From: Methanofollis sp. W23
GTDB taxonomy: Archaea > Halobacteriota > Methanomicrobia > Methanomicrobiales > Methanofollaceae
Direction of reading: 5' to 3'
DNA: 64,000 nt
Assembly: GCF_017875325.1 (NCBI RefSeq)
Contig: NZ_JAGGMN010000001.1
Coordinates: 1,364,001-1,428,000 of the forward strand
The translations under genes and the position numbers were made by a program. Of the stretch, positions 1,560 to 32,536 are shown in pieces (the stretch's first letter is position 1; each line of letters begins with the position of its first letter). Below the pieces are notes generated by a model. It worked only from the letters and a program-made list of their open reading frames with translations, ran no database searches and had not been told where the DNA came from.

Positions 1560-1571
1560 GGGTGGTCAGGA

Positions 1572-2858: not shown

Positions 2859-2870
2859 TGATATAAATAC
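2859..2870 (-). promoter_or_regulatory. TATA-box candidate for the histone gene
   Basis: On the minus strand the sequence reads GTATTTATATCA, close to the archaeal TATA consensus, in a short AT-rich island within G+C-rich surroundings. It lies about 66-77 bp upstream of the histone ATG, which would give a leader of about 40 nt. Confidence 0.55.
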
Positions 2871-2880
2871 CTCTATTTAT

Positions 2881-3970: not shown

Positions 3971-3972
3971 CC

Positions 3973-3980
3973 AAAAAAAA
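3973..3980 (-). terminator. T-tract terminator of the CBS-domain gene
   Basis: An uninterrupted run of eight T on the minus strand begins 3 nt after the stop codon of the CBS-domain gene. T-tracts of this kind act as intrinsic terminators in archaea. Confidence 0.6.
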
Positions 3981-3982
3981 GA

Positions 3983-4858: not shown

Positions 4859-4902
4859 AATAGAATAAGGGACTCTTCATAGTTATCTTGGTTGTGGGTG
4901 CC

Positions 4903-6729: not shown

Positions 6730-6785
6730 TGCAGACCTCTTCTAATATCGTTAGGTTAATTAATAGTATTCTATTATCTAAAAGC

Positions 6786-7100: not shown

Positions 7101-7130
7101 AAGAGCAGACAATTATTCTTGTGATCTTCC

Positions 7131-8132: not shown

Positions 8133-8142
8133 GGATCTGTAC

Positions 8143-8150
8143 TTTTTTTT
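8143..8150 (+). terminator. T-tract terminator after fen
   Basis: Eight consecutive T begin 10 nt after the fen stop codon, immediately before repeat-derived DNA starts. Confidence 0.6.
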
Positions 8151-8752
8151 GATCGAGGTCATCCCGGAACTTTCCGGGCCCGGGATATGACCTGAAGGAC
8201 TCTGTAGATAACATTCTCTTTTCATCACCTCAACCCCCCTGCGAACTGAATCCATAGCCTTCCCTCATGCTCACGCCGGGGGCTCCGCCCCCGGACCCCC
8301 ACGACGAGGATAGGTGGGGGCGGTCGATCCATCAGAGGAATTGTCTATCCTCTGCGTATCGGTTTCAACTGGATATGGAGAGTTCAAACGCTCATACAAA
8401 CCTGAAGAGAGGATCGTCGGGATCATTTTCATGGTAATTGCTCATGAACCCCGGGTTCAAGCATACGGGATGAACATGATCGTGGATCCCGGGGGTGTCT
8501 GGATCCGTGCTCACCCCTCAGAGCAGGATACTATGTGAGACCACCACTTCATTGCCGCCCCCGCCTATCCTCCCCGTGGGGGGTTCGGGGGGCACTCGCC
8601 CCCCGGCGCGAGACGACGGTGGAGATTCTGCAATTGTGGGCGGCACGTCGGATCATCACCCCTCCCCTGATCAATCGCGCCGATGCGGCGCACGGTCCGC
8701 TCCTGATGCACTCACCAGAAAAAAAATTCAACGCAAAAAAAAGAAGAGCGGA
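8151..8752. repeat. Intergenic repeat mosaic between fen and the lipid synthase
   Basis: No gene seen. It contains 'gaggtcatcccggaac' (8156-8171), a left-end-like GACTCTGTAGATAAC at about 8198 followed by 'ttctcttttcatcac', shared with 55892-55930, a G/C hairpin 'cgggggctccgcccccgga' near 8276, and the reverse-oriented 'gatcgtcgggatcattttcatgg' module near 8412, which also occurs near 22070. The longer reading frame on the plus strand across 8495-9364 is a shadow of the downstream minus-strand gene. Confidence 0.55.
8735..8742 (-). terminator. T-tract terminator of the pyrG-to-lipid-synthase operon
   Basis: Two runs of eight T on the minus strand (8735-8742 and 8719-8726) follow the stop of the last gene in the operon within about 35 nt. 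Confidence 0.55.
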
Positions 8753-9346
8753 TCAGAGCCGCTTCCAGATATAGACGATCCGCTGCAGGGCGGTGTAATG
8801 CCCGAACACCCCATAGATGACCAGGAGCCATCCGAGGTACGGCAGCCCGTACACCGGCGCCGCAAAGATGAGATCAAGCAGACCGGCGATGATCAGGAGC
8901 ACCAGGCGATCGGCCCGGCCAAGAACCCCACCGTAGTACCTCCCGACCCCGAGGGCCTGGGCCTGCGTGCCCATATACGAGGACATCAGCACCCCGGTGA
9001 GGGCAAAGACCCCGATCTGCCAGGAGGCCGCACCGCCTGCAAAGAGCCCGGTGATGATGACGATATCGGCGTAGCGGTCAGAGACATGATCGATGAAGTC
9101 GCCGCGCAGACTCGCAACCTCGAGTTCACGGGCAAGCGCCCCGTCCATGGCATCAAAGACCGCATTCACCGCGACCAGGATGACACCCCAGACGATCTCG
9201 CCGAAGTAAAAGGCACCCCCGGCCGCGAAGGCTGCAATCAGTGCAACAGCCGAGAAGAAGTTTGGCGTGAGCCTGAGACGTGCGGCCCCGGCGATCGCCG
9301 GCGAGAGAAGTCCGCTGACATAGGGACGGAGGCGGTCGAGGGTCAT
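8753..9346 (-). CDS. CDP-alcohol phosphatidyltransferase family; probable archaetidylinositol phosphate synthase
   Basis: Membrane enzyme that transfers an alcohol phosphate onto CDP-archaeol to form a polar archaeal lipid head group. The 197-residue protein has the complete family signature DxxDGxxAR(x8)GxxxDxxxD in the stretch FDAMDGALAREL to GDFIDHVSD, plus several hydrophobic helices. Archaeal members of this size mainly make archaetidylinositol phosphate, but archaetidylglycerol phosphate synthesis cannot be excluded. The ATG at 9346 has a GGAGG site 4 nt upstream and overlaps the stop of the preceding kinase by 4 nt. A further upstream in-frame start at 9373 lacks this support. It is the last gene of a six-gene operon. 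Confidence 0.88.
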   Translation of the reverse strand: MTLDRLRPYVSGLLSPAIAGAARLRLTPNFFSAVALIAAFAAGGAFYFGEIVWGVILVAVNAVFDAMDGALARELEVASLRGDFIDHVSDRYADIVIITGLFAGGAASWQIGVFALTGVLMSSYMGTQAQALGVGRYYGGVLGRADRLVLLIIAGLLDLIFAAPVYGLPYLGWLLVIYGVFGHYTALQRIVYIWKRL

Positions 9347-9855
9347 AGCCCCTCCAGGATATAAGAGGACCAATCAACCATCCCGACAGAGGGGGCGACC
9401 TCGCCGGCCATGAAGCCCTCGACGAGGTCGGCGACTTCCTCAGGGTTCAGTGCACCGGCGTCCACCTCGAGCACCTTCTCCCTGGGGAAGCCCTCCAACG
9501 TCTCGATCAGGATGACGTCCAGGGCCTCGGCCTCGGCGTTCTCTCGCACCTTCTCGCGCGGATACCCGCGCGCGGTCAACCTCTCTTTCAGGAGATCAGG
9601 CCGGCACCGGAGCACCACCACCAGGTCGCAGGGAAGAAGATGGGCAAGGTGCCCCTCCACCACCCCGTCGATCGGTTCAAAGGCCGCCGCCCACGCCTCG
9701 GCGTCCACGACTCTCGTGTCACGCGCCGGGTCCTTCCCGAGGATGAACGGCCCGACTGTCTCGGTGGTATGCACCACACGGCGGCCGCGCCCGGCCAGCA
9801 CCACGCCAACCGTGCTCTTGCCTGTACCGGGCGTCCCGGTGATCCCGACCATCAT
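9343..9855 (-). CDS. AK6/Fap7-type adenylate kinase family protein
   Basis: A small P-loop nucleotide kinase/ATPase of 170 residues. Walker A is GTPGTGKST at about 7-15. The AK6/Fap7 hallmarks VEGHLAHLLPCD and RLTARGYPREKVRENAEAE are present. In archaea and eukaryotes this family has adenylate kinase activity and takes part in small-subunit ribosome maturation. Two adjacent ATG codons (9855 and 9852) are possible and the second gives the family N terminus MVGITG. The start overlaps the hisC stop, and the end overlaps the lipid synthase start. Confidence 0.87.
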   Translation of the reverse strand: MMVGITGTPGTGKSTVGVVLAGRGRRVVHTTETVGPFILGKDPARDTRVVDAEAWAAAFEPIDGVVEGHLAHLLPCDLVVVLRCRPDLLKERLTARGYPREKVRENAEAEALDVILIETLEGFPREKVLEVDAGALNPEEVADLVEGFMAGEVAPSVGMVDWSSYILEGL

Positions 9856-10916
9856 TGCAGATCCCTGACCTTCTCCAGAAAGAGTTCGTTCTCCCAGTCG
9901 GCACCGATGCAGACCCTGATATACCGGTCTTCAAGCCCGGGGAAACTCCGACACGACCTGACGACGACGCCCCCCTCTGCCAGTCGCTCCATCGCCTCGT
10001 CCCCTGTCATGGGCGCCACATCGATGAGGACGAAGTTGGCCTCAGAGGGAGCGACCGGGAAGGGGATCTCGGTCATAAAGCGTTCCCGCCACTGCCTCAC
10101 ATGCGCCACGACCTCGTCGATGTGCGCCTGGTCTGCAAGCGCCGCTTCGGCCGCAGCAAGGGCGACACAGTTTACGGCAAAGGGCGTGGCCGCCTGCTCC
10201 AGGTGAGGTGCAAGCCATTCCGGAACAAAGGCATACCCAAAACGCACCCCGGCCAGCGAGTAGGCCTTGGACATCGTCCGCCCCTCGATGAGGTGGTCGT
10301 ATTCCTGCATCAGCGGGCGGTAGTCCGCGTCCGAGAACTCGATATAGGCATTGTCCAGGAAGAGAAGACAATCGATGCCGTCCAGGATCTTCCTGACCGC
10401 CTCGACCGGGACCACATCCCCGGTCGGGTTGTTCGGCGTGCAGAGGAAGGCGAGTTTCGCCCCCCGGCACGCTTCGATGAACTTCGTGGGGTCAACCGAA
10501 AAGTCGGGCTCGCGCGGAACCTCGACGACTTCGGCCCCCTGCGCCGCGGCGGCAAGTCCATAGAAAGAAAACGTCGGGGTGGAGATGACGACGCGGTCGC
10601 CAGGTTCCACCACAGTGCGCACCACCGTCTCGATCACCCCGTCCATGCCATTGCCGAGGAGGAAGGCATGGTCGCCATGCACCCTCCTGAGGGCGTCGAC
10701 CACGGCCTCCTGCCGGGCCGGTGGGTAGCGGTTCCCTTCTTTCAGGGCGGAGAGCCCTGCAGCAATCGTCGCCTCAGACGGGGGAGAGGGGTTCTCGTTG
10801 CTTGCAAGCCGCGCCACTCTCGAAAGCCCCTGCTCGCGCGCGATCTCCTCCGCGCTCTTTGCAAAGACGTACCCCCCTGCAGTCGCGTAACAACGCCTAA
10901 CGATTGAGCGCCTCAT
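9852..10916 (-). CDS. hisC: Histidinol-phosphate aminotransferase
   Basis: PLP-dependent class I/II aminotransferase that converts imidazole-acetol phosphate to histidinol phosphate in histidine synthesis. At 354 residues it has the normal length. The segments LASNENPSPPSEATIAAG, NGMDGVIETV, CTPNNPTGDVVP and DNAYIEFSD match HisC, and the PLP-binding lysine lies in TMSKAYSLAGVRFGY. The ATG at 10916 overlaps the end of argD by 20 bp, consistent with translational coupling. Related aminotransferases (CobD, aromatic) are less likely given the HisC-like N terminus. Confidence 0.93.
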   Translation of the reverse strand: MRRSIVRRCYATAGGYVFAKSAEEIAREQGLSRVARLASNENPSPPSEATIAAGLSALKEGNRYPPARQEAVVDALRRVHGDHAFLLGNGMDGVIETVVRTVVEPGDRVVISTPTFSFYGLAAAAQGAEVVEVPREPDFSVDPTKFIEACRGAKLAFLCTPNNPTGDVVPVEAVRKILDGIDCLLFLDNAYIEFSDADYRPLMQEYDHLIEGRTMSKAYSLAGVRFGYAFVPEWLAPHLEQAATPFAVNCVALAAAEAALADQAHIDEVVAHVRQWRERFMTEIPFPVAPSEANFVLIDVAPMTGDEAMERLAEGGVVVRSCRSFPGLEDRYIRVCIGADWENELFLEKVRDLQ

Positions 10917-12036
10917 TGATCACACCGACGGCCGTGTCGATCTCCTCGTCGGTGATGACAAGGGGCGGCACGAGCCTGATGTTCCCGTCGGCGGCGCAGT
11001 TGACCAGCACCCCGTGCTCGGCACAGTAGTGTTGCACCTCTGCACAGCGCTCGCCGACCGTGAACCCGATCATCAGCCCCACCTGCCTGGGGTTCCAGGC
11101 AGCGAGGCCCCTGGCAAAGCGTGCGCCCTTCTCAGGGATGGACGGGAGAAGGTCTTCGATCACGCCGATCGTCGCCCGTGCGGCAGCGCAGGCAAGCGGA
11201 CCTCCGGCAAAGGTGCTCCCGTGCTCGCCTCCCTTGAACTCCAGGCCCTTGCGGGCGACAAGCGCCCCCATCGGGAACCCGCTTGCGATCCCCTTGGCCA
11301 TCGTGAGGACGTCTGGCTGTGCACCGGTGTGCTGGAACGCAAACCACTTCCCGGTCCGTCCCATCCCGGTCTGGACCTCGTCGATGATCATCAGGGCGCC
11401 GTGGCGGTCACAGCACTCCCTGATCCCTTCAAGAAATCCCTTCGGCGCAGGGAAGACCCCTGACTCGCCCTGGATCCCTTCGACGATCACCCCGGCGATG
11501 TCGTCGTCCATCGCCTGCTCAAGGGCATCGAGGTCGCCGTACTCGACGAAGGTGCATGCAGGTTCAAGGGGCTCGAAGGGCTCCCTGATCGCGGGTTTGT
11601 GAGTGACCGCAAGCGCCCCCATCGTCCGCCCGTGGAAACTGTGCGTGAAGGCGACGAACTTCTTCCTGCCGGTAGCAAGACGGGCAAGTTTGATCGCTCC
11701 CTCGTTCGCCTCGGCGCCGGAGTTCGAGAAGAAGGCCTTCCCGCCGACAAGCCCTGAGATCTCCACGACTTTTTTGGCGAGTTCGGCCTGGTGCGGGACA
11801 TAGAAGAGGTTTGAGCAGTGGATCAGTTCATGTGCCTGCGTACAGATCGCCTCCACCACCTTCGGGTGGCAGTGCCCAGTGCTGCAGACCGCGATCCCCG
11901 CGACACAGTCAAGATACTCATTCCCCTCTACGTCCCAGAGGCGGGCCCCCTGCCCGCGCACGATCTCGGTCGTGCGCGAGAAGGCGGGCATATAATACTC
12001 CGCGTCCAGTTCCTGGTAGTTTTCTGCTAATTCCAT
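10897..12036 (-). CDS. argD: Acetylornithine aminotransferase
   Basis: Class III PLP aminotransferase of arginine biosynthesis (N-acetylglutamate semialdehyde to N-acetylornithine). In some archaea it may also act on succinyldiaminopimelate. The 379-residue sequence includes GIAVCSTGHCHP, the substrate-binding EGIQGESGVFP, the PLP-phosphate/aspartate region MIIDEVQTGMGRTG and the Schiff-base lysine in LTMAKGIASGFPMGAL. It is 12 nt downstream of the guaA subunit gene and overlaps hisC, inside the minus-strand operon. Confidence 0.94.
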   Translation of the reverse strand: MELAENYQELDAEYYMPAFSRTTEIVRGQGARLWDVEGNEYLDCVAGIAVCSTGHCHPKVVEAICTQAHELIHCSNLFYVPHQAELAKKVVEISGLVGGKAFFSNSGAEANEGAIKLARLATGRKKFVAFTHSFHGRTMGALAVTHKPAIREPFEPLEPACTFVEYGDLDALEQAMDDDIAGVIVEGIQGESGVFPAPKGFLEGIRECCDRHGALMIIDEVQTGMGRTGKWFAFQHTGAQPDVLTMAKGIASGFPMGALVARKGLEFKGGEHGSTFAGGPLACAAARATIGVIEDLLPSIPEKGARFARGLAAWNPRQVGLMIGFTVGERCAEVQHYCAEHGVLVNCAADGNIRLVPPLVITDEEIDTAVGVINEALNR

Positions 12037-12048
12037 ACCATCATCATC

Positions 12049-12966
12049 TCATTCGTACTCGATTGTTGCAGGGGGCTTGGGGGTGATATCATAGACCACC
12101 CGCGAGACCTCGGCGATCTCGGACGCAACCCGCCCGGCAATCCTGACCAGGTCGTCGAAGGGCACCTCCAGCGGGTCGGCGGTCATGCCGTCGCGCGAGT
12201 TCACCGCCCTGACGGCGACGACCCAGCCGAAACACCTGACATCGCCCTTGACGCCGGTCCCCCGGCCGAGAAGCGCGGCAAAGCACTGCCAGGGCTGATA
12301 GCGCTCGACGAGTTCTTCTTCCACGATCGCGTTCGCCTCCCTGACGACCGCAATCTTCTCAGGGGTCACCTCGCCGAGCACACGGACTGCAAGCCCCGGG
12401 CCAGGGAAGGGCATCCTGTGCTGGATCTCGGCCGGGAGGTCCACGCCGCCGGCGACCTCGCGCACCTCGTCCTTGTAGAGATCACGCAGGGGCTCGATCA
12501 CCTTCTCAAACATCATGTCCAGGGGCATGCCGCCGACATTGTGGTGGCTCTTGATCCCGCCTTCACTCTCGATCCGGTCAGGATAGATCGTCCCCTGCAG
12601 GAGGTACTTCGCGCCGGTGGCCTTTGCCTCGCGCTCAAAGATCCTGATGAACCGCTCACCGATGACCTTTCTCTTCTCTTCAGGATCGATGACCCCCTTC
12701 AGCGCCGCAAAAAATTCGTCGGCGGCGTCGACTCTCTTCACGCCGAGGGGAGCGAAGACCTCGCAGATCCGTTCGCTTTCGCCCTTGCGCATCAGTCCGG
12801 TGTCCACATAGATGGGGACCAGGTTCGTCCCGATCGCCCGCGCCGCCAGCATCGCACAGACCGAGGAGTCCACGCCGCCCGAGAGGGCGACGACGACCTT
12901 CTCGTCCCCGGCCTCCTGCCTGATCTCCTTGACTGCACGCTCGATAAACTGCTCTACCTTGACCAT
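12049..12966 (-). CDS. guaAB: GMP synthase subunit B (ATP pyrophosphatase)
   Basis: Archaeal GMP synthases are split. This is the ATP-PPase/dimerisation subunit that adenylates XMP, and it needs a separate glutaminase subunit that is not in this window. Of 305 residues, the PP-loop [11 protein letters not shown] is near residue 30. The dimerisation domain contains HHNVGG and [16 protein letters not shown], and the protein ends with [13 protein letters not shown] as in GuaA. The ATG at 12966 has an AGAGGTTGA ribosome-binding site. It lies 14 nt after pyrG, so two amination steps of nucleotide synthesis are cotranscribed. Confidence 0.96.
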
Positions 12967-12980
12967 TGCTCAACCTCTTT

Positions 12981-14567
12981 TTACTGGTGTTCCTGGTTCT
13001 TGTACTCCATGCACGCCTTCACAAACCCGATATAAGGCGGTGACGCCCTCGTCGGCCTCGACCTGAACTCAGGATGGAACTGGGTCGCAAAGAAGAACGG
13101 GTGAGAGGGGAGTTCGAGGATCTCCATCCTGTTCCCGTTCATCCCTGAAAAGACCAGCCCATTCTCTTTCAGTTCCTCGATATATTCGGGGTTCACCTCG
13201 TAACGGTGCCGGTGCCGCTCGGTGATCGACGTCTTCTGGTAGAGGTCCCATGCCCTGGTCCCCTCCACCACGTCGACCGGATAACTCCCAAGACGCATGG
13301 TCCCGCCGAGTTTGGTAACGTTCTCCTGCTCTGGAAGGAGGGCGATCACCTGGGTGCCCTCGCCGAACTCCTCAGAGATCGCGTCCTCATACCCGAGGAC
13401 ATCACGGGCAAACTCCACGACCGCCATCTGGAACCCAAGGCAGATCCCGAGGAACGGGATCTGGTTCTCCCTGGCGTACCTGATCGCAGTGACCTTTCCG
13501 GAGACCCCGCGCTGGCCAAAACCGCCCGGGATCAGGACGCCGTCCAGCTCAGCAAGTTCTGCAGGTTCGTAGGTCTCTGCGTCCAGCCACTTGATCTGCA
13601 CCTCGGCAGAGAGGGTACGGCCGGCGTGCTTGAGGGCTTCCTTGATCGAGAGATACACATCCTCGATCCCGTACTTGGTGACGATCCCGATGGTCACCCG
13701 GTTGGTGTAGTCCTCGGTGACGGTGCGGTACCACTCGGCGTCCACCCCGCGCTTTTCGAGGTCAAGGAGGTCGAGGACGACATTGGCAGCCCCTTCCTTC
13801 TCAAGCTCCATCGGGACATGGTAGATGTCGGAGGCGTCGGCCGCACTGACGACCGCGTTGAGCGGGACGTCGCAGAACTCTGAGATCTTGCGGCGCGAGT
13901 GCATCGGAAGAACCCGGTCGCTCCGGCAGACGATGATGTCTGGGCGCAGTCCGAGTTCGCGCAGCGCCTTGACCGAGTGCTGCGTCGGTTTGGTCTTGAG
14001 GTCGCCCATTGTGTCTGCAGGGACCAGGGTCACGTGCAGCAGGGCGGTGTCGTGTGCAGGGAGTTCGCCGCGCATCTGGCGCACCGCCTCAAGGAAGGGC
14101 ATCGACTCGATGTCGCCGACCGTGCCGCCGACCTCGACGAGGCATACCTCAGCCTTGTAGCCGTTGTTCTCGAACTCTTCTGCAGACCTGGCGATGCAGG
14201 CCTTGATCTCGTCGGTGATGTGCGGGATGATCTGGACGGTCCCGCCCAGGAAATCTCCGCGCCGTTCTTTCTCGATGACGCTCTTGTAGATCTTGCCGGT
14301 GGTGATGTTGTGGTTGCGCGTCAACTCGATGTCAAGAAAACGCTCGTAGTTGCCGAGGTCCAGGTCAACCTCACCCCCGTCGCTGAGCACGAAGACCTCC
14401 CCGTGCTGTGCAGGGTTCATGGTACCTGCATCAATGTTCAGGTAGGGGTCGATCTTGATCGCGGTGACCTGATACCCCCGGTTTTTCAGGATCCTCCCGA
14501 TCGATGCTGCTGTTATGCCTTTGCCAAGGCCACTCATTACGCCGCCAGTAACGAATATATACTTCAA
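12981..14567 (-). CDS. pyrG: CTP synthase
   Basis: Converts UTP to CTP using ATP and glutamine. At 528 residues it is full length: the N-terminal synthase domain starts [18 protein letters not shown] with the nucleotide-binding loop, and the C-terminal class I glutamine amidotransferase domain carries the nucleophile in GICLGFQ and the His/Glu pair in ATQFHPEF. The start codon is TTG at 14567, the only position that gives the universally conserved N terminus, and a GGGGA stretch lies upstream. It is the promoter-proximal gene of the six-gene cluster. Confidence 0.97.
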
Positions 14568-23400: not shown

Positions 23401-24366
23401 TCACTCAAAGCGCCAGACCGGGCCGCCTGCACGCCAGCCTTTCCTCTTCCCTGTTCCTGGGGCGAGATCGGCCTGGTCGTCCGCGGCCTCCCTGAGGGTG
23501 GCGCTGGTCAGGTCGGCAAAGTGGACTGTCCATGCCTCAGGGGTCTGGCAGGGCACCTCGCCGTGCGGGCCATGGTGGGACTGGAGGATGTGGAGAAGGT
23601 GGGCAGCCTTCTCAGGGGGCAGGCGTTTTGCGAACGGCGCGATGTACGAGACCCCGAGAGTGACATGCCCGATGAGGTCGTACTCGGGCTGTGCCGCAAA
23701 CCCAAGTCCTTGCTCCTCGAAGCAGCAGGCCTTCCCGATGTCGTGAAGGAGGGCACCGGCGATGACCAGGTCGCGGTCGATCTCGGTCCTGGTGGCATCG
23801 CAGGCCGCCCGCGCGATCCTGGCGGCCTCAAGGGTGTGCTCTGCAAGCCCTCCCCTGTACTCGTGGTGCCTCCCCTTTGCCGCAGGTTTGATGAAGAACC
23901 CGTCGGCCGACGAGATCGCCTCAAGCACCAGGTGCCTGAGCACCGGGTCTGAGATCTCATTGGCCGTCCTGAATATCCCGTCCTTCAGGTCCAGGCCCTT
24001 GAGCGGCGACGTGAGATAGTCCTCAGGGTCGAGGCCCATGGGAGGGACCGGGGCGGCGAAGTCGGCGATCCCCTCGTTCACCGAGACCTGCATCGAACCA
24101 TTGTAGGTCTTTGCATTCCCTCTCACGTGGTAGACCGCACCGACCTGCATCGAGGAGGCGGTCTCGGTGACCTGGTCCGCGCACCCCTGCACCCCCCAGA
24201 GAAAGCAGGAGAGCGTGCCGGTGACATCCCCGATCTCAGCCCTGACGTACGGGCTCCCGTCCCTCTTCTGTTTCACCTCGAAGGTCTTGAGGAGGAAGAG
24301 GTCGTCCACCTTCTCGCCGTCAGTGATCTCTGCTGCAAACTTCTGTTTCACGCACCTATCATTCAT
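23401..24366 (-). CDS. OB-fold/HD-domain protein, YhaM-like 3'-5' exoribonuclease
   Basis: A 321-residue cytoplasmic protein. The N-terminal OB fold (about 15-110: FLLKTFEVKQKRDGSPYVRAEIGDVTG, NGSMQVSVNEG) should bind single-stranded nucleic acid. The C-terminal HD phosphohydrolase domain carries YRGGLAEHTLEAARIA and LVIAGALLHDIGK, the metal-binding His and HD residues, with later histidines in LLHILQSHHGPHG. This is the layout of YhaM-type 3'-5' exonucleases. It is the third gene of an operon, 12 nt after the BrxC/D-like ATPase, which suggests a shared nucleic-acid role. Exact substrate is inferred. Confidence 0.85.
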   Translation of the reverse strand: MNDRCVKQKFAAEITDGEKVDDLFLLKTFEVKQKRDGSPYVRAEIGDVTGTLSCFLWGVQGCADQVTETASSMQVGAVYHVRGNAKTYNGSMQVSVNEGIADFAAPVPPMGLDPEDYLTSPLKGLDLKDGIFRTANEISDPVLRHLVLEAISSADGFFIKPAAKGRHHEYRGGLAEHTLEAARIARAACDATRTEIDRDLVIAGALLHDIGKACCFEEQGLGFAAQPEYDLIGHVTLGVSYIAPFAKRLPPEKAAHLLHILQSHHGPHGEVPCQTPEAWTVHFADLTSATLREAADDQADLAPGTGKRKGWRAGGPVWRFE

Positions 24367-24378
24367 CCAGTCTACTCC

Positions 24379-25662
24379 TCAAAACTCGACCTCAAAGAAG
24401 GCCTCTTCCTCTTCGTTCAGTTCCTGCTTTACCTTTCCGGCGTCGAAGGCATAGGCCTGTGCCGGGTCGTACTCGGTATAGAGTTCGCACTTGTCCAGGA
24501 GATCGACGAACTCGCGCAGGAAGACCCGTGGGATAACGTCTACCCGCCCGCCAAAGCGCGAGGTGACCCCGTCGATCATCCCCCTCACAAAACGGTGCGA
24601 GACCCGTTCCCTGTCCACCGGACCATAGGCGTCAGAGTAGACCTCGCAGACCTTCTGGGCGGCCGCCTCGAGTTTTGGCCTGTCAAAGGGGGAGAGCTCG
24701 ATCTGGGTCTGGAGAGGGTTGGTATATCCGTCGTCCCCGACGACCTTCAGCCGGTCGTACAGCGGCGGGAGCGACCTGATCCCTTTCGAGCCCTCGAAGA
24801 AAGCCGGCGTCCCGGTGAAGAGGAAGTAACAGTGGGGCATCTGACCGCGGTCGACAGCGTCGACGATCTGGCGGAGGTTGTTGTAACCGCGCTGCCGCAG
24901 ATTGGAGGGGAGGGCCTGGACGGTCTCGACCTCGTCGACGGCCACGGCAAGTCCGCGGTAGCCTGCCCCCCTGATCACCCGCACGATCCCCTGGAGAAAG
25001 ACCAGGGCCGAGACCTCGTCCACCTCGCCCTTCACCCCGGCCGCCCGACGGAAGTCGCGGCCGATATGGGGCTCGCCAGAGAGCCAGCCAAGCGCCGCCT
25101 GGGCGAGCTGGAACTCTCCTGCGTTGTTGGCGGTGTAATAGACCCGCAACGCCGCCGCCAGCGCCGGGTTCACCGTCGAGATGTCGGTGAGCGCCTCCTC
25201 GATCCGCGCCACCGTCCCGGCCTCCAGGACCTCGTCCTCCTCGGTCTTCTCGACATCGATGATCTGTTCTTCGATCGAGAAGGTCCAGTTGTCGATGATC
25301 TCCTTGAGGGCGTTCTCGTGCTCGGCCGTCCGCAGGGACGAGAGGATCCGGTAATAGAGGGCGCTCAACTTATGGAGCGGGGTGTCGGCCGAGATCATCA
25401 CGTGGGCGGTCGCATACCCCTGATCTCGTGCGATCTCAAGTGCCCGCGCCACCAGGAAGGTCTTCCCGCTCCCATAGTCGCCGCGCACGAACTTGACGTC
25501 TGCCCCGCCGGTGGCGACGTATTCGAGTTGCTCGCCGATCACCCGCCCCTCGACCTCGAGCCCAACCGCAAGTCGTTCGAGCCCTGCGGCAGGGACCGTG
25601 CCCCGCCTGAGGGCGTTGATGATCCCGATACTTTCAGCCTTCTTCTCATCCATCCTCTTCAC
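24379..25662 (-). CDS. BrxC/BrxD-like P-loop ATPase (former DUF2791)
   Basis: A 427-residue ATPase. Walker A GDYGSGKT is at about 61-68, and Walker B LAVAVDEVE at about 238-246. The text between (DNWTFSIEEQII, YTANNAGEF, ALGWLSGEP) and FLFTGTPAFFEGSKGIRSLPPLYDRL follows the DUF2791/BREX ATP-binding family. In BREX type 2 loci the relative BrxD accompanies PglX and PglZ, none of which is present here. The GTG start at 25662 overlaps the upstream TPR gene stop (GTGA), implying coupled translation; an in-frame ATG at 25653 is an alternative. Likely an ATP-driven partner of the TPR and OB/HD proteins. Function unknown. Confidence 0.85.
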   Translation of the reverse strand: MKRMDEKKAESIGIINALRRGTVPAAGLERLAVGLEVEGRVIGEQLEYVATGGADVKFVRGDYGSGKTFLVARALEIARDQGYATAHVMISADTPLHKLSALYYRILSSLRTAEHENALKEIIDNWTFSIEEQIIDVEKTEEDEVLEAGTVARIEEALTDISTVNPALAAALRVYYTANNAGEFQLAQAALGWLSGEPHIGRDFRRAAGVKGEVDEVSALVFLQGIVRVIRGAGYRGLAVAVDEVETVQALPSNLRQRGYNNLRQIVDAVDRGQMPHCYFLFTGTPAFFEGSKGIRSLPPLYDRLKVVGDDGYTNPLQTQIELSPFDRPKLEAAAQKVCEVYSDAYGPVDRERVSHRFVRGMIDGVTSRFGGRVDVIPRVFLREFVDLLDKCELYTEYDPAQAYAFDAGKVKQELNEEEEAFFEVEF

Positions 25663-27458
25663 TTCCCGGTGTAGACATAGATCTCGCCGTGTTCACCCAT
25701 ACCCTGTTTCTCGATGAGAGAGACGCCGGCCTCACTGGCCTTTTTGATGAGCCGGTTCACCACCCCGCTCACCCGCCGTGTCCCGAGCACTTTCCTGAGG
25801 TCTGCTTCATTGCTCTCTCTGTGCTGTTTTAAAAATGCGACGAGCGCCGTTTCACGCTCGTCAAGCCCGAGGTCGGGGAGATCGTCGTGTTCCTCGTCTC
25901 TCGTGGCCCTCGCCGCCCCGGCGCCCTCAGGGGGGAGGACCGGGCGTTCGGCCACCGTCGCCTCCTTACACCGCGAGACGACCTCGAAGAACTCGTGCGT
26001 ATGCGCCCTGGTCAGGTCAAGCCCGTGCAGGGCGCACTCCTTGCACCGCATGTACTCGCCTGCCTCAAGCGCCCCCTCTGCGGCGCAGAGGTAAATCCTG
26101 GCAAAGACTTCCAGGCCCTCAGGACTGAGGGTGGTGACCTCGGCCGAGAACCTGGTGATGAGCCCGTCGACGAGGCGCGGCATCCTCTGCCACCCGTGCT
26201 CGGCCTCAAAGACCGTCTCCGCGACCCGCACCAGGTCCCCGGTCTTTTTGACATGGGTGAGGACATAGAGGAGCACCTTCTCGCACTCGCGCAGGTCTCC
26301 CTCCCCTGCCAGGAACCTGGCGTATTCGGTCCCGCCGTTGAGAAAGTCGAGGCGGTAGGCCCGGTACAGCCACTCGCGCCCCTTTTTCTCCTCGCCAAAT
26401 GAGGCGTAGAACCACCCGGTCCGTGCAAGGCTGACGACGTTCGGGTCCTCTGAGACGACAGAGAGGTAGCAGTCAGGCACCGTGGTGAGAGGTCTGGACT
26501 TCTTGAGAAATCCCTCGTAGGCCTCGATGATCACCGAGAGGGTCTCGAGGTCGTCGCCCTGCGCGATCTCTTCCCTGATCAGGTCTTCATATCCCTGTTG
26601 CGCCAGGTCGGTCTCCCCGGTCGCGGCGACGAGTTCGCAGGCGACGACCTGGTGGATCGGGTCGGGCTTCATCTCGATGAGGCGTTTGCAGGCCTCAAGC
26701 GCCTCCAGGTACCGGTGTTCAGACTTGAGGAGGAGCACATAGTCGAGGACGAGGTCGTCGTCCGGGCATTTCTGGAGGACGGTCGGGAAGAGGTGGAGGG
26801 CGGCGGGACGGTCATAGGCGGCGAGAGCAGCGAGGTGCTGGCGCAGGAATCCTGCGTCATGGCACGAGTGGTATGCCGCCAAGGCGGCCTTGGCCGCCTC
26901 CTGGCATCTGCCGTCGATGATCAGAGCGTCGATGTACTCGGTCTCTGCGCCCTCTCCCCCGAGCAGGGATGCATGGACCTCGAGTGCTCCCTCGCCGTCG
27001 CCGGTGGCGATGAGGTTGCGCATCAGGGCGACGGCGTCGTCCTCTTTTTTCGAGATCGGCGCAAGGGCCGAGAGGAGAGGCCGGGCGGCGCGGTGGTCCT
27101 CCAGTCCGGTGAAGTGCGCCGCATAGGCACGCAAGGCTTCCTCGTTTTCGGGATCAAGCTGGACCGCCGTGGCATAGGCGGCGACCCCGCCCTCCTTCCC
27201 CGCGGCGTCGAGCACCTTCCCAAGAAAACTATAGTAATAGGAAGAATCGGGGGCGTGCGTGATGAGGTCGCGGAGTCGCACTTCGGCCTCGTCGTACTCA
27301 CCAAGAGCAAAATAGTTGGTCACGATGAGGACGGCAACCGAAGGGTCGGCGGCGCCGTCCTGGTGCGAGGCGCAACACTCGATCGAGTCCCAGTATCTTC
27401 CTGCCTCATAGAGGGCGAACGCCTCTTTCCTCCAGCTGGTGGGTGACCCCTCATTCAT
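25659..27458 (-). CDS. TPR-repeat protein with C-terminal winged helix
   Basis: A 599-residue, Ala/Leu-rich, all-helical protein. Tetratricopeptide-like helices run through most of it (for example AFALYEAGRYWDSIECCASH, ATAVQLDPENEEALRAYAAHF, LEALEACKRLIEMKPDP). After a linker near 500-535 the last 65 residues form a winged helix (ERETALVAFLKQHRESNEADLRKVLGTRRVSGVVNRLIKKASEAGVSLIEKQG). The start at ATG 27458 (MNEGSPTSWRKEAF) agrees with a TATA candidate 33-42 bp upstream. It is the first gene of the three-gene operon and is fused to it by a GTGA overlap. Probably a scaffold that couples the ATPase and nuclease to a partner or to DNA. Not a recognised family beyond its domains. Confidence 0.82.
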   Translation of the reverse strand: MNEGSPTSWRKEAFALYEAGRYWDSIECCASHQDGAADPSVAVLIVTNYFALGEYDEAEVRLRDLITHAPDSSYYYSFLGKVLDAAGKEGGVAAYATAVQLDPENEEALRAYAAHFTGLEDHRAARPLLSALAPISKKEDDAVALMRNLIATGDGEGALEVHASLLGGEGAETEYIDALIIDGRCQEAAKAALAAYHSCHDAGFLRQHLAALAAYDRPAALHLFPTVLQKCPDDDLVLDYVLLLKSEHRYLEALEACKRLIEMKPDPIHQVVACELVAATGETDLAQQGYEDLIREEIAQGDDLETLSVIIEAYEGFLKKSRPLTTVPDCYLSVVSEDPNVVSLARTGWFYASFGEEKKGREWLYRAYRLDFLNGGTEYARFLAGEGDLRECEKVLLYVLTHVKKTGDLVRVAETVFEAEHGWQRMPRLVDGLITRFSAEVTTLSPEGLEVFARIYLCAAEGALEAGEYMRCKECALHGLDLTRAHTHEFFEVVSRCKEATVAERPVLPPEGAGAARATRDEEHDDLPDLGLDERETALVAFLKQHRESNEADLRKVLGTRRVSGVVNRLIKKASEAGVSLIEKQGMGEHGEIYVYTGK

Positions 27459-28003: not shown

Positions 28004-28225
28004 ATGGTGCTGGTCACGATCGAGAGGGAGGAGTGCACGAGCTGTGCACTCTGCTGGGAGACCTGCCCGGAGATCTTTGAAGAGAGCCCAGACGGACGCG
28101 TCCAGATCAGGGAGGAGTACCAGACAGACGGCCCTGATACCGGCGAGATCCCGGATGAAATAGAGGACTGTGCGGGCGACGCCGCCGACGGGTGCCCGGT
28201 GGAGATCATCGAGGTCGGGGGGTGA
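28004..28225 (+). CDS. Ferredoxin, [4Fe-4S] type
   Basis: A small acidic electron carrier of 73 residues. Cluster ligands are CTSCALCWETCP (CxxCxxCxxxCP) near residue 10 and a C-terminal CxxxxxxxCP (DCAGDAADGCPVEII). The central CxxCxxC plus the distal CP can bind one [4Fe-4S] cluster. The second set is incomplete for two full clusters, so a single-cluster ferredoxin of the kind with a long acidic loop is most likely. The ATG at 28004 fits the usual start (MVLVTIEREECTSC); the longer frame to 27767 runs into repeat DNA. It is monocistronic and its partner is unknown. Confidence 0.85.
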   Translation: MVLVTIEREECTSCALCWETCPEIFEESPDGRVQIREEYQTDGPDTGEIPDEIEDCAGDAADGCPVEIIEVGG

Positions 28226-28600
28226 AGAGGAGGAGTGCCCGGCTGCAACACGGGTTCTCTCTGAGATCAGAACATCCTTTTTTTCGGTTCTGGAGAAATC
28301 CTCATCAGTGTCCGGTGTGAGCGCGTCTCACTCGCCTTCCACTCTCTTCTCACCTGGGGCGAGTGCCCCCCTGACCCCGGGGACGACGATGAAACCAGGA
28401 AGGCCAGATCGAGAACCATGAGGGGGTGCTGTCGTCTTTGACCTCTCGTCGCGCGAGGAGAGCCGGGAGAGCGGCACGCCCCTCGCCCCAGCAAGTCTTC
28501 AAAAGGATTTCTCCCGAATCGATCTCGTGTCGGTCTTCAAGGTGCAAACGAAGAGAGCACCAGAACCTCCCAGAGGGGCTCCTACAGAGTTCTATTTTCA
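28226..28600. repeat. Intergenic repeat-derived DNA upstream of the MFS transporter
   Basis: Contains a left-end-like GGTTCTGGAGAAATCCTC at 28286, a 'cacctggggcgagtgcccccctgacccc' G/C-rich block, 'aaaaggatttctcccgaatcg' near 28500, and a right-end-like CTACAGAGTT ending near 28591. No gene is seen. The promoter-proximal part after 28600 is distinct and not repetitive. Confidence 0.5.
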
Positions 28601-28602
28601 CC

Positions 28603-28624
28603 ATTTCAGGAAATATCCCGAAAT
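28603..28624. promoter_or_regulatory. 22-bp palindrome, candidate operator of the MFS efflux gene
   Basis: An imperfect inverted repeat ATTTCxGGAxA/TxTCCxGAAAT with 9 of 11 symmetric base pairs, located 17 bp upstream of the TATA-like element and 58 bp upstream of the GTG start. Such symmetric sites ahead of drug-efflux genes are typical targets of TetR/MarR-like repressors. No regulator gene is adjacent, so the function is inference. Confidence 0.4.
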
Positions 28625-28640
28625 TCCCGACCCAAAAGTA

Positions 28641-28650
28641 GATATAAACA
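28641..28650 (+). promoter_or_regulatory. TATA-box candidate for the MFS transporter
   Basis: GATATAAACA, within a short AT-rich stretch, 32-41 bp upstream of the GTG start at 28682. No clear ribosome-binding site follows. Confidence 0.5.
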
Positions 28651-28681
28651 GATTTATTTCTCCGAAAGGGTACCGTACTCT

Positions 28682-30178
28682 GTGAAACCAAGTCAGCCTT
28701 CGACACAGGGTACGCAGACCTTGCTCCTCATCTCCGCCATCGCCCTCGCGGCCTTCATGTCCGCCCTCGACGGCAGCATCGTGAACATCGCCCTCCCAAC
28801 GATCTCGGAAGGGTTTGACATCTCGACCGGGCTCGTCTCATGGGTCTCGACGATCTATCTCCTGGTGGTGACGAGCAGTCTCCTGATCTGCGGGAAACTC
28901 GCCGACATCAAAGGTCTGAAAAAGATCTTTCTCCTGGGATTTGTCATCTTCACCCTTGGGTCGTTTCTCTGCGGCTTCCTCCCGGGCGCCCTCAACTCCT
29001 TTGCGTCGCTCCTCGGCGCCAGGGTCGTCCAGGCGATCGGCGGGGCGATGATCGCCGCCATCGCTCCGGCGATGGTCAGCGTCTTCATCCCGGCCGAAGA
29101 GCGGGGGCGGAGCATGGGGCTGGTGGTCACCTTCGCCTCGCTTGGCGCAGCGGCCGGGCCGTTCCTCGGCGGGCTTCTCACTGAGTTTCTCAGCTGGCAC
29201 TGGATCTTCTTCATCAATGTCCCGGTCGGGATCGCGGCCGTGGCCCTGGGGGCGCGGGTCATCCCCAATCATCAACCTGGCTCAGGACGGTCGGCAGGGT
29301 TTGACGCACCTGGCGCCGCCCTCCTCTTTGCCGGTATGATGACCGGCGTCTTCGCCCTCAACATGGGGACCGCGATGGGGTTCACCTCGCCGCTGATCCT
29401 GCTGGCCGGCGCCGTCGCCCTGACCTGTGCCGGCCTCTTCATATACCATGAACGGCGTGCCGAAGACCCACTCCTCGACCTCAGTCTCTTCACCAACCGG
29501 AACTTCCTGTATGCAAACCTGGCGGTCACCCTGATCATGATCGCCTTTGCCGGGTCGGCCTTCCTCCTCCCCTTCTTCCTCGAATATGTCAAGGGGCTCG
29601 AAACCTTCTCGGCCGGGATGGTGATGACCGCCTTCTCGTTTGCCATGATGATCGGCGGACCGGTGGCTGGCTCGCTCTTCAACCGGGTCGGCGGTCGAAG
29701 GCTCACCCTGGCCGGCGCGACCCTGGCGGCCCTCAGTTTTGTCATCCTTGCCGGGCTCCACCCTGACAGCCCGGTGATCATGGTCGCGGGAGCACTCGGG
29801 CTCCTGGGGTTTGCGATCGGGCTCTATGTCGCCCCGAACAACACCATGGTGATGAACACGGTCAGGCCCGAGAAGCGGGGGATGGTCTCAAGCCTCCTCA
29901 ACACCGAGCGCTATGGGGGCCAGTCCCTGGGGATTGTCCTCTTTGAACTGGTCCTCATCCAGGCCGTCCTCTCGATCGTCTCGCATGCCGAGGTGACCAC
30001 CGAGTCGCTTGCCTCGGTCACCATCGACCAGAAACTCGCGGTCCTCTCGGCCGGGTTCGATATGGCCTTCTGGGCCGGGGCGGCGCTCGCGGTGCTGGCA
30101 CTGGGGCTCTCGTTCCTGGTGAGAGAAGAAGAGGTGCCTGCTGAAATCGAAGAAGAGACTCCTGCGGTAGCAGGGTGA
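28682..30178 (+). CDS. MFS multidrug efflux transporter, DHA2 (EmrB/QacA) type
   Basis: Proton-driven exporter of 498 residues with about 14 predicted transmembrane helices. The family motif in helix 1, ALDGSIVNIALPTI, and the loop motif GKLADIKGLKKIFLLG are clear, as are GRSMGLVVTFASLGAAAGPFLGGLL (antiporter motif C-like) and the mid-protein loop that joins the two halves. It starts at GTG 28682 (MKPSQPSTQGTQTLLL). Substrate unknown, probably hydrophobic drugs or cations. Single-gene unit with its own promoter, a candidate operator and a strong terminator. Confidence 0.93.
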   Translation: MKPSQPSTQGTQTLLLISAIALAAFMSALDGSIVNIALPTISEGFDISTGLVSWVSTIYLLVVTSSLLICGKLADIKGLKKIFLLGFVIFTLGSFLCGFLPGALNSFASLLGARVVQAIGGAMIAAIAPAMVSVFIPAEERGRSMGLVVTFASLGAAAGPFLGGLLTEFLSWHWIFFINVPVGIAAVALGARVIPNHQPGSGRSAGFDAPGAALLFAGMMTGVFALNMGTAMGFTSPLILLAGAVALTCAGLFIYHERRAEDPLLDLSLFTNRNFLYANLAVTLIMIAFAGSAFLLPFFLEYVKGLETFSAGMVMTAFSFAMMIGGPVAGSLFNRVGGRRLTLAGATLAALSFVILAGLHPDSPVIMVAGALGLLGFAIGLYVAPNNTMVMNTVRPEKRGMVSSLLNTERYGGQSLGIVLFELVLIQAVLSIVSHAEVTTESLASVTIDQKLAVLSAGFDMAFWAGAALAVLALGLSFLVREEEVPAEIEEETPAVAG

Positions 30179-30185
30179 ACCCGCA

Positions 30186-30207
30186 GAGGGTTCATACCCT
30201 TTTTTTT
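30186..30207 (+). terminator. Hairpin and T8 terminator after the MFS gene
   Basis: AGGG/CCCT short stem with a TTCATA loop followed by eight T, starting about 8 nt after the stop codon. A repeat end (GGCTCTGTAGAAA) begins immediately after the T-tract at 30208. Confidence 0.6.
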
Positions 30208-30369
30208 GGCTCTGTAGAAACTCTTCACCTAGAGGTCATCCCAAAACTCTCCAGCCCTCCTCCTCACCGATGAAGCGCGATGGATGGCAATGAAGAGATC
30301 CCACCTTTTTCATCGCGCACCCGTGCATTCATCGCCTTTCCATCTCTTTGGCCGGGGGCGCGGCTCCCC

Positions 30370-30478
30370 CCGAACCCCAGGACCACGATGGGGCCGGGAA
30401 GGCACACTCAATCGCCATGAAGGATGTAATGCCGTCCACCGCCTCTCGAATCGCGCGAGGGGACCTGGGGGCGGCACG
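30370..30478 (+). repeat. Direct repeat copy A
   Basis: Shares with 30881-30987 the runs 'gaccacgatggggccg', 'gaaggcacactcaatcgcc', 'gtccaccgcctctcgaat' and 'ggacctgggggcggc'. Same orientation, 0.5 kb apart. Confidence 0.8.
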
Positions 30479-30880
30479 CCCCCCGGTCGAGGAGAGAGTT
30501 TAGAATTTCTGGAAGGAAGCACTTCAGTTCGAGGAGATCTTCAACCATAGAGAGTTTTGGGATGTGCTCCTGGTGTGGAAAGAATGTGTGTCACCCACCT
30601 CCCCATCGTCTCGTGCCGGGGCGAGTGCCCCCCAAACGCCAGGGATCAAGATTGGAAGGGGAAGGAAAACCAATGGACATGACGAGGGGAGTTGCAGTAC
30701 CCCGCCTTATCTTGATGCAGAGGGCGGTGATGAAGCCATATCTTCAAGATGCCCGTCGAGAGGAAAAGAACCCCTCCCCGTCTCGAAACACTGCTCGATG
30801 AAAATATCATCTCAAATTTGATCAATTCTTGACCCTCATCCTTTTACGAACGAGAAGTGATCGAAGTCGAGCATCATGCC

Positions 30881-30987
30881 GCCCGAACCCCCTGGACCAC
30901 GATGGGGCCGAGAAGGCACACTCAATCGCCATGAAGAGCGTACGTCCACCGCCTCTCGAATCGCGCGGGGGGACCTGGGGGCGGCCA
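30881..30987 (+). repeat. Direct repeat copy B
   Basis: Second copy of the 30370-30478 segment with a 3-bp internal deletion (after 'catgaagagcgta') and a few substitutions. Confidence 0.8.
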
Positions 30988-31382
30988 AGCCCCCTGCCAA
31001 AGATACATGCCTAGGATTTCTACAAAACCCATTTTTCCGATCTTCGTGCTCATCAAGGAGACGAGCGGAAGGGCAGAACCCATTTGAAGACGCTCTCAAG
31101 GGAGGGGCATGCCACTCGCACGAGCAATGAAGAGAAGTGCGCGATCAGAGACGTCATCCTGACAGATCTGTATGAATGTCTACAGGATCGAAGAATTGAA
31201 AATGCATTGAAACAGGATGAGATATCCTGGCACTCTGGAGGGTATATTCTTGATTTCTCCTGTTTCAAGCAGAGAGATACTTTGTTCGACACCCCATGGA
31301 GGGGGACCGTTCTCATACACACGGCCTGTATCATGGGAACTAATCCTGACCCACTGGACCGGGACACGTGATGAAGTGGAGG

Positions 31383-31553
31383 TTACTCGATAGTCCCCTC
31401 CTCGGTCTCGTCAAGGAGATGGTGAAGATGGTCGTCGAGGTTCTTGATGTGCGCGTTGAGTTCTTCGATGTCTCTTCCCACGTGCTCGACGTCGTCATGC
31501 ACATGTTCGAGTTCTGCTTTCATGTGATCCACAAGTTCTTTCGTCTCTGTCAA
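31383..31553 (-). CDS. 56-residue coiled-coil microprotein
   Basis: A short minus-strand gene. TTG at 31553 begins MTETKELVDHMKAELEHV and the frame ends DETEEGTIE at TAA 31383. A full GAGGTGA ribosome-binding site sits 4 nt upstream of the TTG, a much better signal than expected by chance. The product is strongly acidic, His-rich and fully helical with a leucine/valine heptad pattern (LVDHMKAELEHVHDDVEHVGRDIEEL, LNAHIKNLDDHLHHLLDE), so a homodimeric coiled coil is likely. No family recognised and no neighbour in the same unit. Confidence 0.72.
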   Translation of the reverse strand: MTETKELVDHMKAELEHVHDDVEHVGRDIEELNAHIKNLDDHLHHLLDETEEGTIE

Positions 31554-31557
31554 CCGT

Positions 31558-31564
31558 TCACCTC
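31558..31564 (-). promoter_or_regulatory. Ribosome-binding site that fixes the TTG start of the coiled-coil microprotein
   Basis: Minus-strand GAGGTGA, complementary to the archaeal 16S rRNA 3' end, with 4 nt to the TTG. Confidence 0.65.
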
Positions 31565-32536
31565 TTTTCTGTATCTAATCGTGTAAGGAGGAGCCTCCCT
31601 ACATAGTAAAAGTGTAGGATAAGGAAGCAATGAACCTCACTCGAAAGATATTCGGTTCTGAGATGATTCCAAAAAATACCACGAGACCGATGTAGAATCA
31701 GGTCGGAACACGGGGTTCACGCACATGGGATGAAAATTATCCGAGTTTTCTGGAGTGAGTGGACCCCCGCTTTCCCTCCAGAGTTAGACCATAAGAGGGG
31801 TGTTGCCGTCCTCGACCTCTCGTGTCGCGGTACGCCCCTCCGCCCGAGCGTCCCATCCAGAGGAGTTACTATGAGGTCATCCCAACACTCCCCACCCCTC
31901 CTTCTCACCGATGATAGTGAGAGATGATAATGAAGAGATCCCTGCATTCGTCGCTTTCCCAGATCCCGGTGCCGGGGGCGCTACCCCCGGACCCCAGTGA
32001 TGGCGAATGGAGCGGGGAGGGAAAGCGAGGATCGTGAATACAGGACGTAATCCTCCGCCAATCTTCATCACCGGAGGGTCCGGGGGGCGGCCGAGCCACC
32101 AGGTGGAGGAGTGAGGGTAGCATTTCTGGAAGGAAGCACTTCAGTTCGGGGGATGTTCACGAGGAACATGATCCCAAATCTCGATCTTCTCGATTTACAT
32201 GACGATTTGAACTCACGAGATCTCAGTGAGACCAATATGCAGAGGATAGGGGTCTGTAGAAACCTTCGGGACAGTTATCTTTGGCAGGGGGTTGACCGCA
32301 CCGCCAACCACCCCCACGCCAGGTTAGGTCGTGGACGGCAATCCCTCTTCAGGGAGTTCCGATCCCCCATGAAGAGGAGAGACAGAGGCGACGCATTGAA
32401 CACAGTCCCAAAAGATTCTCCTGTCTTCGTAGGGGAGATCACGCCACAAGGTATGTTCATCCAGTATGCGTGAGGCGTGATCCCGCCTCATGCCGAATTT
32501 TACAGAGCCGAAATAATCAAGACAAGAGACCACCGA
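31565..32536. repeat. Intergenic repeat mosaic
   Basis: No gene. It holds 'gaggtcatcccaacactcc' (31874), a G/C hairpin 'gccgggggcgctacccccgga' (31973), 'gcatttctggaaggaagcacttcagttcggggg' (32120), 'catgacgatttgaactcacgagatc' (32199), a left end GGGTCTGTAGAAACC at 32250 and the end segment 'tgccgaattttacagagcc' closing at 32509. The modules and their order match 46500-46650 and 61080-61260. Confidence 0.6.

What the first reader, a model, noticed from the sequence alone, without database searches (positions are those of the whole stretch)
23401..27458. Three-gene operon: TPR/winged-helix protein, BrxC/BrxD-like ATPase, OB/HD nuclease
The three genes are joined by a GTGA overlap and a 12-nt gap, so they are expected to act together. 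The ATPase belongs to the BREX P-loop family (DUF2791), but PglX, PglZ, BrxL and helicases are absent. The TPR protein ends in a winged helix and the last gene is a YhaM-like single-strand nuclease. Together they could form an ATP-driven nucleic-acid surveillance or defence module distinct from BREX. Function is inference.
Basis: partly seen in the sequence, partly recalled or inferred. Interest (0 to 1): 0.76.

Follow-up and report, generated by a model that had tools for sequence, protein, structure and literature searches.

The report
BREX-free ATPase–helicase module in methanogens
Two neighbouring genes of a methane-making archaeon, an ATPase otherwise known from a phage-defence system and a repeat protein with a likely DNA-binding end, are inherited and lost together with a helicase gene far away on the chromosome, which points to a three-part machine not described in the papers searched.

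Summary
The three genes are real and lie as described, on the minus strand. The ATPase is a BrxD (NCBIfam BrxD 431 bits, cut-off 350). The first gene is a TPR superhelix ending in a winged helix. The pair is core rather than patchy: the TPR gene ends directly upstream of the ATPase in 80 of 80 loci examined, at a housekeeping locus, in Methanofollis, Methanoregulaceae-type and Methanocorpusculaceae-type Methanomicrobiales. The OB/HD gene does not track the pair and is a neighbour. Over 199 genomes of the order, pair and helicase are both present in 106, both absent in 84, and discordant in 9, all at most 89% complete. In a single-contig genome both sites are cleanly empty while their flanks remain. 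Best reading: a BREX-independent BrxD–BrxHI helicase machine with a TPR–winged-helix adaptor, vertically inherited. Partnership is well supported; helicase loading and chromosome surveillance are inferred; stand-alone immunity remains a close rival.

The parts
25659..27458 (-). TPR-winged-helix protein (599 aa), proposed DNA-binding adaptor; core partner
   Evidence: directly upstream of the ATPase in 80 of 80 loci
25671..25859 (-). winged-helix domain, residues 534-596 (H534-546, H551-558, H563-576, E582-588, E591-596)
   Evidence: AlphaFold2 model, block pLDDT 82-88 over this part; alignment A4 mean column identity 60%
24379..25662 (-). BrxD-type ORC/Cdc6-like AAA+ ATPase (427 aa, GTG start in the GTGA overlap)
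25459..25482 (-). Walker A of the ATPase (GDYGSGKT, residues 61-68)
   Evidence: G61, G64, G66, K67, T68 invariant in 16 pair-type ATPases
24931..24951 (-). Walker B of the ATPase, ending in D243 E244
   Evidence: D243 and E244 invariant in 16 sequences and in 37 including Shango-type ATPases
23401..24366 (-). OB-HD protein, YhaM-like; neighbour, probably co-transcribed here, not a conserved partner
   Evidence: phylogenetic profile
9852..14567 (-). HisC, ArgD, GuaA and PyrG homologues: the housekeeping flank that marks the conserved locus
   Evidence: Pfam; synteny

Best explanation
The TPR-winged-helix protein and the BrxD-type ATPase are two parts of a three-protein, BREX-independent machine whose third part is a BrxHI-like SF2 helicase encoded about 1.3 Mb away. 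Shown here: the two genes are a fixed, translationally overlapping pair; the ATPase is a BrxD by sequence with an ORC/Cdc6-like AAA+ fold; the module is vertically inherited at two housekeeping loci; pair and helicase are retained or lost together. Inferred: the ATPase, which lacks the C-terminal winged helix of ORC/Cdc6, is brought to DNA by the winged helix of its TPR partner and, powered by ATP, loads or switches on the helicase at abnormal DNA such as stalled forks or R-loops. The purpose is probably chromosome surveillance or repair, with immunity against foreign DNA a close second.
For: Pair in 80 of 80 named loci. BrxD identity: NCBIfam 430.9 against cut-off 350; ATPase tree joins the pair clade (100/100) with BREX BrxD (99/98), apart from Shango-type ATPases. 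In every annotated non-methanogen relative whose downstream gene I saw (8 of 8: counting once each: Thiodictyon, Yoonia, Klebsiella, Aulosira, Pseudanabaena, Deinococcus, Streptomyces, Halocatena, Paenibacillus, Polaromonas, i.e. 10 of 10) the next gene is a DEAD/DEAH helicase. A BrxHI-like helicase (own copy PADLOC BrxHI 534.6 against SngC 381.6) lies unlinked in pair-bearing genomes: 106 both, 84 neither, 5 pair only, 4 helicase only of 199, all 9 discordant genomes at most 89% complete. RpoA1 tree: pair presence needs 4 changes, 3 forced by well-supported branches. In G155 (one contig, 99% complete) both sites are empty with flanks kept, 24 and 33 nt between the neighbours. Fold: best solved match A. 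pernix ORC2, Z 17.6, rmsd 3.5, 260 residues, ending at ORC2 residue 288 of 394. ATPase dN/dS 0.03-0.06.
Against: No physical interaction was tested; no complex could be modelled. The helicase clade has only moderate support (83/60) and is not placed inside BrxHI. Helicase calls were sorted by hand from a table that scores at most about five candidates per genome; for five genomes of genus g35 the scores (228-246 bits) overlap those of Shango-type helicases, and only three of these five were checked in a tree. The family-level presence pattern is a few events, not 199 independent ones. The known relatives of BrxHI are immune helicases (Cell 2024 paper, passage read), which favours the defence rival. 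Fold matches of TPR repeats are generic.
Confidence: 0.55

Rival explanations
1. Resident innate immunity: the three proteins are a stand-alone defence system (a BREX-2 or Shango relative) that happens to be vertically inherited. TPR-WH senses foreign DNA, BrxD loads BrxHI, which unwinds or blocks it.
For: All characterised relatives are defence proteins: BREX-2/6 and Shango, whose antiphage activity is reported in PMC10250203 (passages); SngC and BrxHI fall in a helicase clade defined by immune functions (PMC12278908, passage). In genus g35 the three genomes lacking the module (G155, G177, G197) each have a strong PglZ (211-212 bits), whereas of the five bearing it two have 68-69 bits, one 22.6 and two none, as if one system replaced another.
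Against: Fixed housekeeping loci, no PADLOC hit among 10 neighbouring genes, near universality in three families, ATPase as conserved as HisD (medians 61 and 65% between families), no match in 50,697 phage records or in IMG/VR viral contigs. G047 carries both a strong PglZ and the pair.
Confidence: 0.3
2. The pair alone is a transcriptional or signalling switch (AAA+ switch plus TPR and DNA-binding domain, MalT-like but on two polypeptides); the helicase correlation reflects shared ancestry only.
For: Domain logic; ORC/STAND-type fold.
Against: Both loci are lost in each of the losses that the RpoA1 tree requires, and in G155 both are cleanly excised about 46 kb apart; BrxD elsewhere is a helicase partner.
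Confidence: 0.08
3. One reading: TPR-WH, ATPase and OB/HD nuclease act together as an operon product.
For: 12-nt gap here; HD directly downstream in Methanofollis and several Methanocorpusculum loci: within 100 nt in 9 of 80 loci and somewhere in the locus in 14 of 80.
Against: HD does not track the pair: 39 both, 72 pair only, 56 HD only, 32 neither of 199; HD stays at the locus in f2 and f4 without the pair.
Confidence: 0.07

Closest known systems
BREX type 2 (and 6) BrxD ATPase with BrxHI helicase
   Same: ATPase 40% identical to BREX-2 BrxD, E 1.8e-99, passes the BrxD equivalog cut-off, grouped with BrxD in the tree; helicase scores best with PADLOC BrxHI.
   Different: No PglX, PglZ or BrxC beside it; helicase on a separate locus; TPR-WH partner; vertical core genes in archaea. 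PMC12839542 (abstract, section 24 and passages read) states that its 1309 type-2 BREX taxa include no archaea and treats BrxD and BrxHI as a linked dyad.
Shango (SngA TerB protein, SngB ATPase, SngC helicase)
   Same: Same ATPase superfamily and same helicase superfamily; an extra protein is encoded immediately upstream of the ATPase.
   Different: SngB scores only 153 bits against BrxD 434; ATPase tree places Shango apart; no TerB; the TPR-WH winged helix shows no profile similarity to SngA (E 0.7).
Archaeal ORC/Cdc6 initiators
   Same: AAA+ fold, Z 17.6 to A. pernix ORC2.
   Different: 13% identity over the alignment, and no C-terminal winged helix of its own; a winged helix is present on the TPR partner.
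YhaM / CBF1 3'-5' exoribonuclease (for the neighbour gene)
   Same: OB plus HD domains, E 9e-23 to a solved YhaM.
   Different: 88 bits against the YhaM equivalog cut-off of 460.

Membership tests
BrxD ATPase family | Curated BrxD equivalog score | tested here: met
   NF033438 430.9 bits, cut-off 350
BrxD ATPase family | Groups with BREX BrxD rather than SngB in a tree | tested here: met
   99/98 support for pair plus BrxD; position relative to the BREX-2 and BREX-6 branches unresolved
BREX type 2 system | PglZ in the locus | tested here: not met
   No PglZ at the locus; the only own-genome PglZ is a BREX-3 PglZ, 593.6 bits, at another locus
BREX type 2 system | PglX, PglW and BrxC/PglY in the locus | tested here: not met
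   None among 10 neighbouring window genes scanned with PADLOC; not searched genome-wide
BREX type 2 system | BrxHI helicase next to BrxD | tested here: not met
   BrxHI-like helicase present but 1.3 Mb away
BrxHI helicase family | Best family score BrxHI over full length | tested here: met
   PADLOC BrxHI 534.6 bits over 3-693, SngC 381.6
BrxHI helicase family | Nested in or sister to BREX BrxHI in a tree | tested here: inconclusive
   Core clade 83/60, relation to BrxHI unresolved
Shango | TerB-domain protein SngA with SngB and SngC in one operon | tested here: not met
   P0001 had no PADLOC hit, P0002 scored SngB 153 against BrxD 434
ORC/Cdc6 AAA+ | AAA+ fold with Walker A and B | tested here: met
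ORC/Cdc6 AAA+ | C-terminal winged helix in the same protein | tested here: not met
   Model ends in helices and a low-confidence tail; alignment stops at ORC2 residue 288
YhaM exoribonuclease (neighbour P0003) | Curated YhaM equivalog score | tested here: not met
   88.5 bits, cut-off 460
Antiphage defence system | Protects a host against phage or virus | not testable with these tools
   Needs an experiment

The most novel reading that the evidence does not exclude
BrxD-BrxHI is a BREX-independent helicase-loading machine that serves as a resident chromosome-surveillance system in a large part of Methanomicrobiales, with a previously undescribed TPR-winged-helix adaptor that supplies in trans the DNA-binding domain missing from BrxD; BREX-2 and Shango would then be defence systems built round the same ATPase-helicase core.
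Probability: 0.4. Interest if true: 0.8.

Novelty: new variant of a known kind. Interest (0 to 1): 0.63.

Why it matters
The role of BrxD and BrxHI in type-2 BREX is unknown; a 2026 survey (section 24 of PMC12839542) can only suggest helicase loading and reports type-2 BREX from no archaeon. Here the same two proteins appear to work without any BREX effector or methyltransferase, as core genes with a defined extra partner. That gives a minimal three-protein system in which the loading hypothesis can be tested directly, and natural pairs of close relatives with and without the module. It would also be a case of a defence-type ATPase-helicase set serving as resident machinery, or of resident machinery from which defence systems were built; the unrooted trees do not tell which.

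Tried and rejected
Rejected: (1) OB/HD as third partner, because its presence does not follow the pair. (2) Mobile defence island: conserved synteny in 20 loci, no PADLOC hit in 10 neighbours, no match in phage records, none confirmed in viral contigs. (3) Degenerate BREX-2 remnant: strong purifying selection and invariant Walker motifs. (4) Homology of the winged helix with the C-terminus of SngA: none found (E 0.7). (5) The pair outside the order: 12 genomes outside the order matched the ATPase profile in 294 phylum genomes, none above 241 bits, against at least 588 bits for unbroken pair-type copies; the winged-helix profile found 28 of 236 genomes, 26 of them pair-bearing at 103 bits or more and two at about 26 bits.

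A family or fold that is not listed is not thereby excluded. In the trees one Shango-type row is odd: sngArch_L115_7 is a very long branch; Deinococcus BrxD is a long branch too.

Rows dropped before counts: in the HD profile the two genomes with only weak hits (G019, G070) were set to absent. From, 14 of the 153 matched genomes were counted as lacking the pair because their only match was another subfamily. In one search, 27 of the pair-type sequences at hand were used, and five unrelated ORFs picked up by length were removed. RpoA1 of G191 was not found, so 29 of 30 genomes entered, G197 with a partial sequence.

Full report
Observation. The three genes lie on the minus strand with the boundaries given. 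The first two share the bases GTGA; the third follows after 12 nt. The ATPase is PF10923 over nearly its whole length (431 bits) and passes the curated BrxD cut-off of NCBIfam (430.9 against 350). The TPR protein matches TPR models; the third protein has an OB and an HD domain and is YhaM-like but below the YhaM equivalog cut-off.

Structure. AlphaFold2 models: ATPase mean pLDDT 86.9, TPR protein 88.4. The ATPase aligns best with Aeropyrum ORC2 (Z 17.6, rmsd 3.5, 260 residues), up to residue 288 of a 394-residue chain, so it has the AAA+ part and not the winged helix that follows in ORC/Cdc6. The TPR protein is a long helical repeat followed by a linker of low confidence and a winged helix at residues 534-596. 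This is the anatomy behind the proposal that the partner supplies the DNA-binding domain; that step is inference.

The pair is core. A named-genome scan kept the best 80 of 111 relatives of the ATPase, all from records titled Methanomicrobiales genera or Euryarchaeota MAGs. In 80 of 80 the TPR protein ends directly upstream on the same strand. In 20 loci of 20 kb from unnamed relatives the pair sits between a PyrG-GuaA-ArgD-HisC block with thioesterase, DJ-1 and glycosyltransferase genes on one side and HisD on the other, with local variation; in the window the PyrG block lies at 9852-14567. A search of all 232 genomes of the class found a profile match in 153; by my sorting 139 are pair type, all in families f1, f5 and f6. 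Outside the order the profile found 12 genomes, none above 241 bits. Between families the ATPase is about as conserved as HisD (median 61 and 65% identity to the same Methanofollis locus), the TPR protein much less (38%). dN/dS against two Methanofollis relatives: ATPase 0.03 and 0.06, TPR 0.15 and 0.19, HD 0.12 and 0.24.

What the ATPase is. Its best relatives in plasmids are annotated BREX BrxD proteins, about 40% identical. In a tree of 59 ATPases the pair clade (100/100) groups with BREX BrxD (99/98), apart from Shango-type ATPases and two other archaeal groups. In the BrxD and Shango records read, the gene after the ATPase is a DEAD/DEAH helicase: 10 of 10 annotated records whose downstream gene was shown (the Rhodococcus stretch ended at brxD and the Azospirillum record has no annotation). 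The pair lacks one.

The missing helicase. I therefore searched 199 genomes of the order with the BREX-2 BrxHI helicase. Besides the generic Lhr-type helicases of 850-990 aa found everywhere, pair-bearing genomes carry a helicase of about 700-790 aa, 30-42% identical to BrxHI, at another locus. The window genome's copy is at C1:2714796-2716673, 1.3 Mb from the pair; it scores 534.6 bits with PADLOC BrxHI and 381.6 with SngC. In many of 20 loci inspected its neighbours are PurF, an LSm protein and a thioredoxin, again housekeeping genes. Cross-tabulation (presence assigned by hand): both 106, pair only 5, helicase only 4, neither 84, n = 199. By family: f1 12 of 12 both; f5 65 both of 75; f6 29 both of 33; f2 (28), f3 (11) and f4 (40) neither. 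The nine discordant genomes are 74-89% complete (completeness), so none of the 132 genomes of at least 90% is discordant. The HD gene gives 39, 72, 56 and 32 for the same four cells.

Independent losses. Shared ancestry could produce such a table with few events. On an RpoA1 tree of 29 genomes pair presence needs 4 changes, 3 of them forced by well-supported branches. The most telling case is genus g35: G148, G163, G167, G171 and G182 have pair and helicase; G155, G177 and G197 have neither. G155 is one contig, 99% complete. There the glycosyltransferase and HisD are 24 nt apart with only the pair missing, and so in G177; the thioredoxin and the next gene are 33 nt apart with only the helicase missing. 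The two sites are about 46 kb apart and each keeps both flanks, so one deletion cannot explain both.

Interpretation. The simplest account is that TPR-WH, BrxD and BrxHI form one functional unit in which the ATPase loads or activates the helicase, as proposed for BREX-2 on other grounds (PMC12839542, section 24 read). The TPR-WH protein would recognise or dock on DNA. What the unit does for the cell is open. Housekeeping location, slow evolution and near universality in three families favour chromosome surveillance; archaeal Lhr, a related type of helicase, is linked to stalled forks (PMC7437997, abstract). Against this, the known members of the BrxHI/SngC helicase group are immune (PMC12278908, passage), Shango is antiphage (PMC10250203, passages), and in g35 the genomes without the module have a strong PglZ while those with it do not. 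I put maintenance slightly ahead.

Novelty. Searches for DUF2791 (none), BrxD with BrxHI (2 papers), BrxD with archaea (6), BrxHI (10) and BREX with Methanomicrobiales (2) in the held library showed no description of this unit in the listings; I read passages of five papers (PMC12839542, PMC10609329, PMC10250203, PMC12458937, PMC12278908) and the abstract of one (PMC7437997). Subscription papers are mostly not in that library, so this is not proof of absence.

Weak points. No interaction is shown. The helicase clade is moderately supported and not resolved against BrxHI. Helicase presence was sorted by hand with knowledge of the hypothesis, and the genome search scores few candidates per genome. 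Two of the five pair-bearing g35 helicases (G163, G171) were not tested in the tree. The direction of transfer between archaea and BREX is unknown.

Noticed in passing
L294 (G000:C1:974500-994499), genes at 97-11115: The same genome has a BREX-3-like locus: DUF6079/BrxC-like protein, DNA methylase, SNF2-type helicase, PglZ (NCBIfam BREX-3 PglZ 593.6 bits) and a 237-aa protein.
   Followed up: partly
L112-L120, L129, L130: Shango-like TerB protein, SngB-type ATPase and SngC-type helicase sets occur patchily in the order, in genomes with and without the core pair.
   Followed up: partly
L186-L188 (genomes G255, G264, G271): Another gene set outside the order: a 258-aa protein of unknown family, a BrxD-related ATPase and a BrxHI-like helicase, next to type I restriction genes in L187.
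   Followed up: no
genus g35: G155, G177, G197 against G148, G163, G167, G171, G182: The three genomes that lack the module each have a strong PglZ (211-212 bits; the G155 fragment scores 249 with BREX-1 PglZ type A); the five with the module do not.
   Followed up: partly
L121, L122, L189-L192: A third archaeal group of PF10923 ATPases travels with a smaller helicase and two other conserved genes.
   Followed up: no
window 28170-32473: Short ORFs in this stretch translate into similar phrases several times over, which suggests dispersed repeats (seen by eye).
   Followed up: no
window 49316-51031: A 571-aa minus-strand ORF with low third-position GC (0.46 where most genes have 0.7-0.8) and no Pfam match: perhaps recently acquired.
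   Followed up: no
window 52500-52571 and 56780-56852: Two tRNA-Ala (GGC) genes on the minus strand with identical Rfam scores.
   Followed up: no
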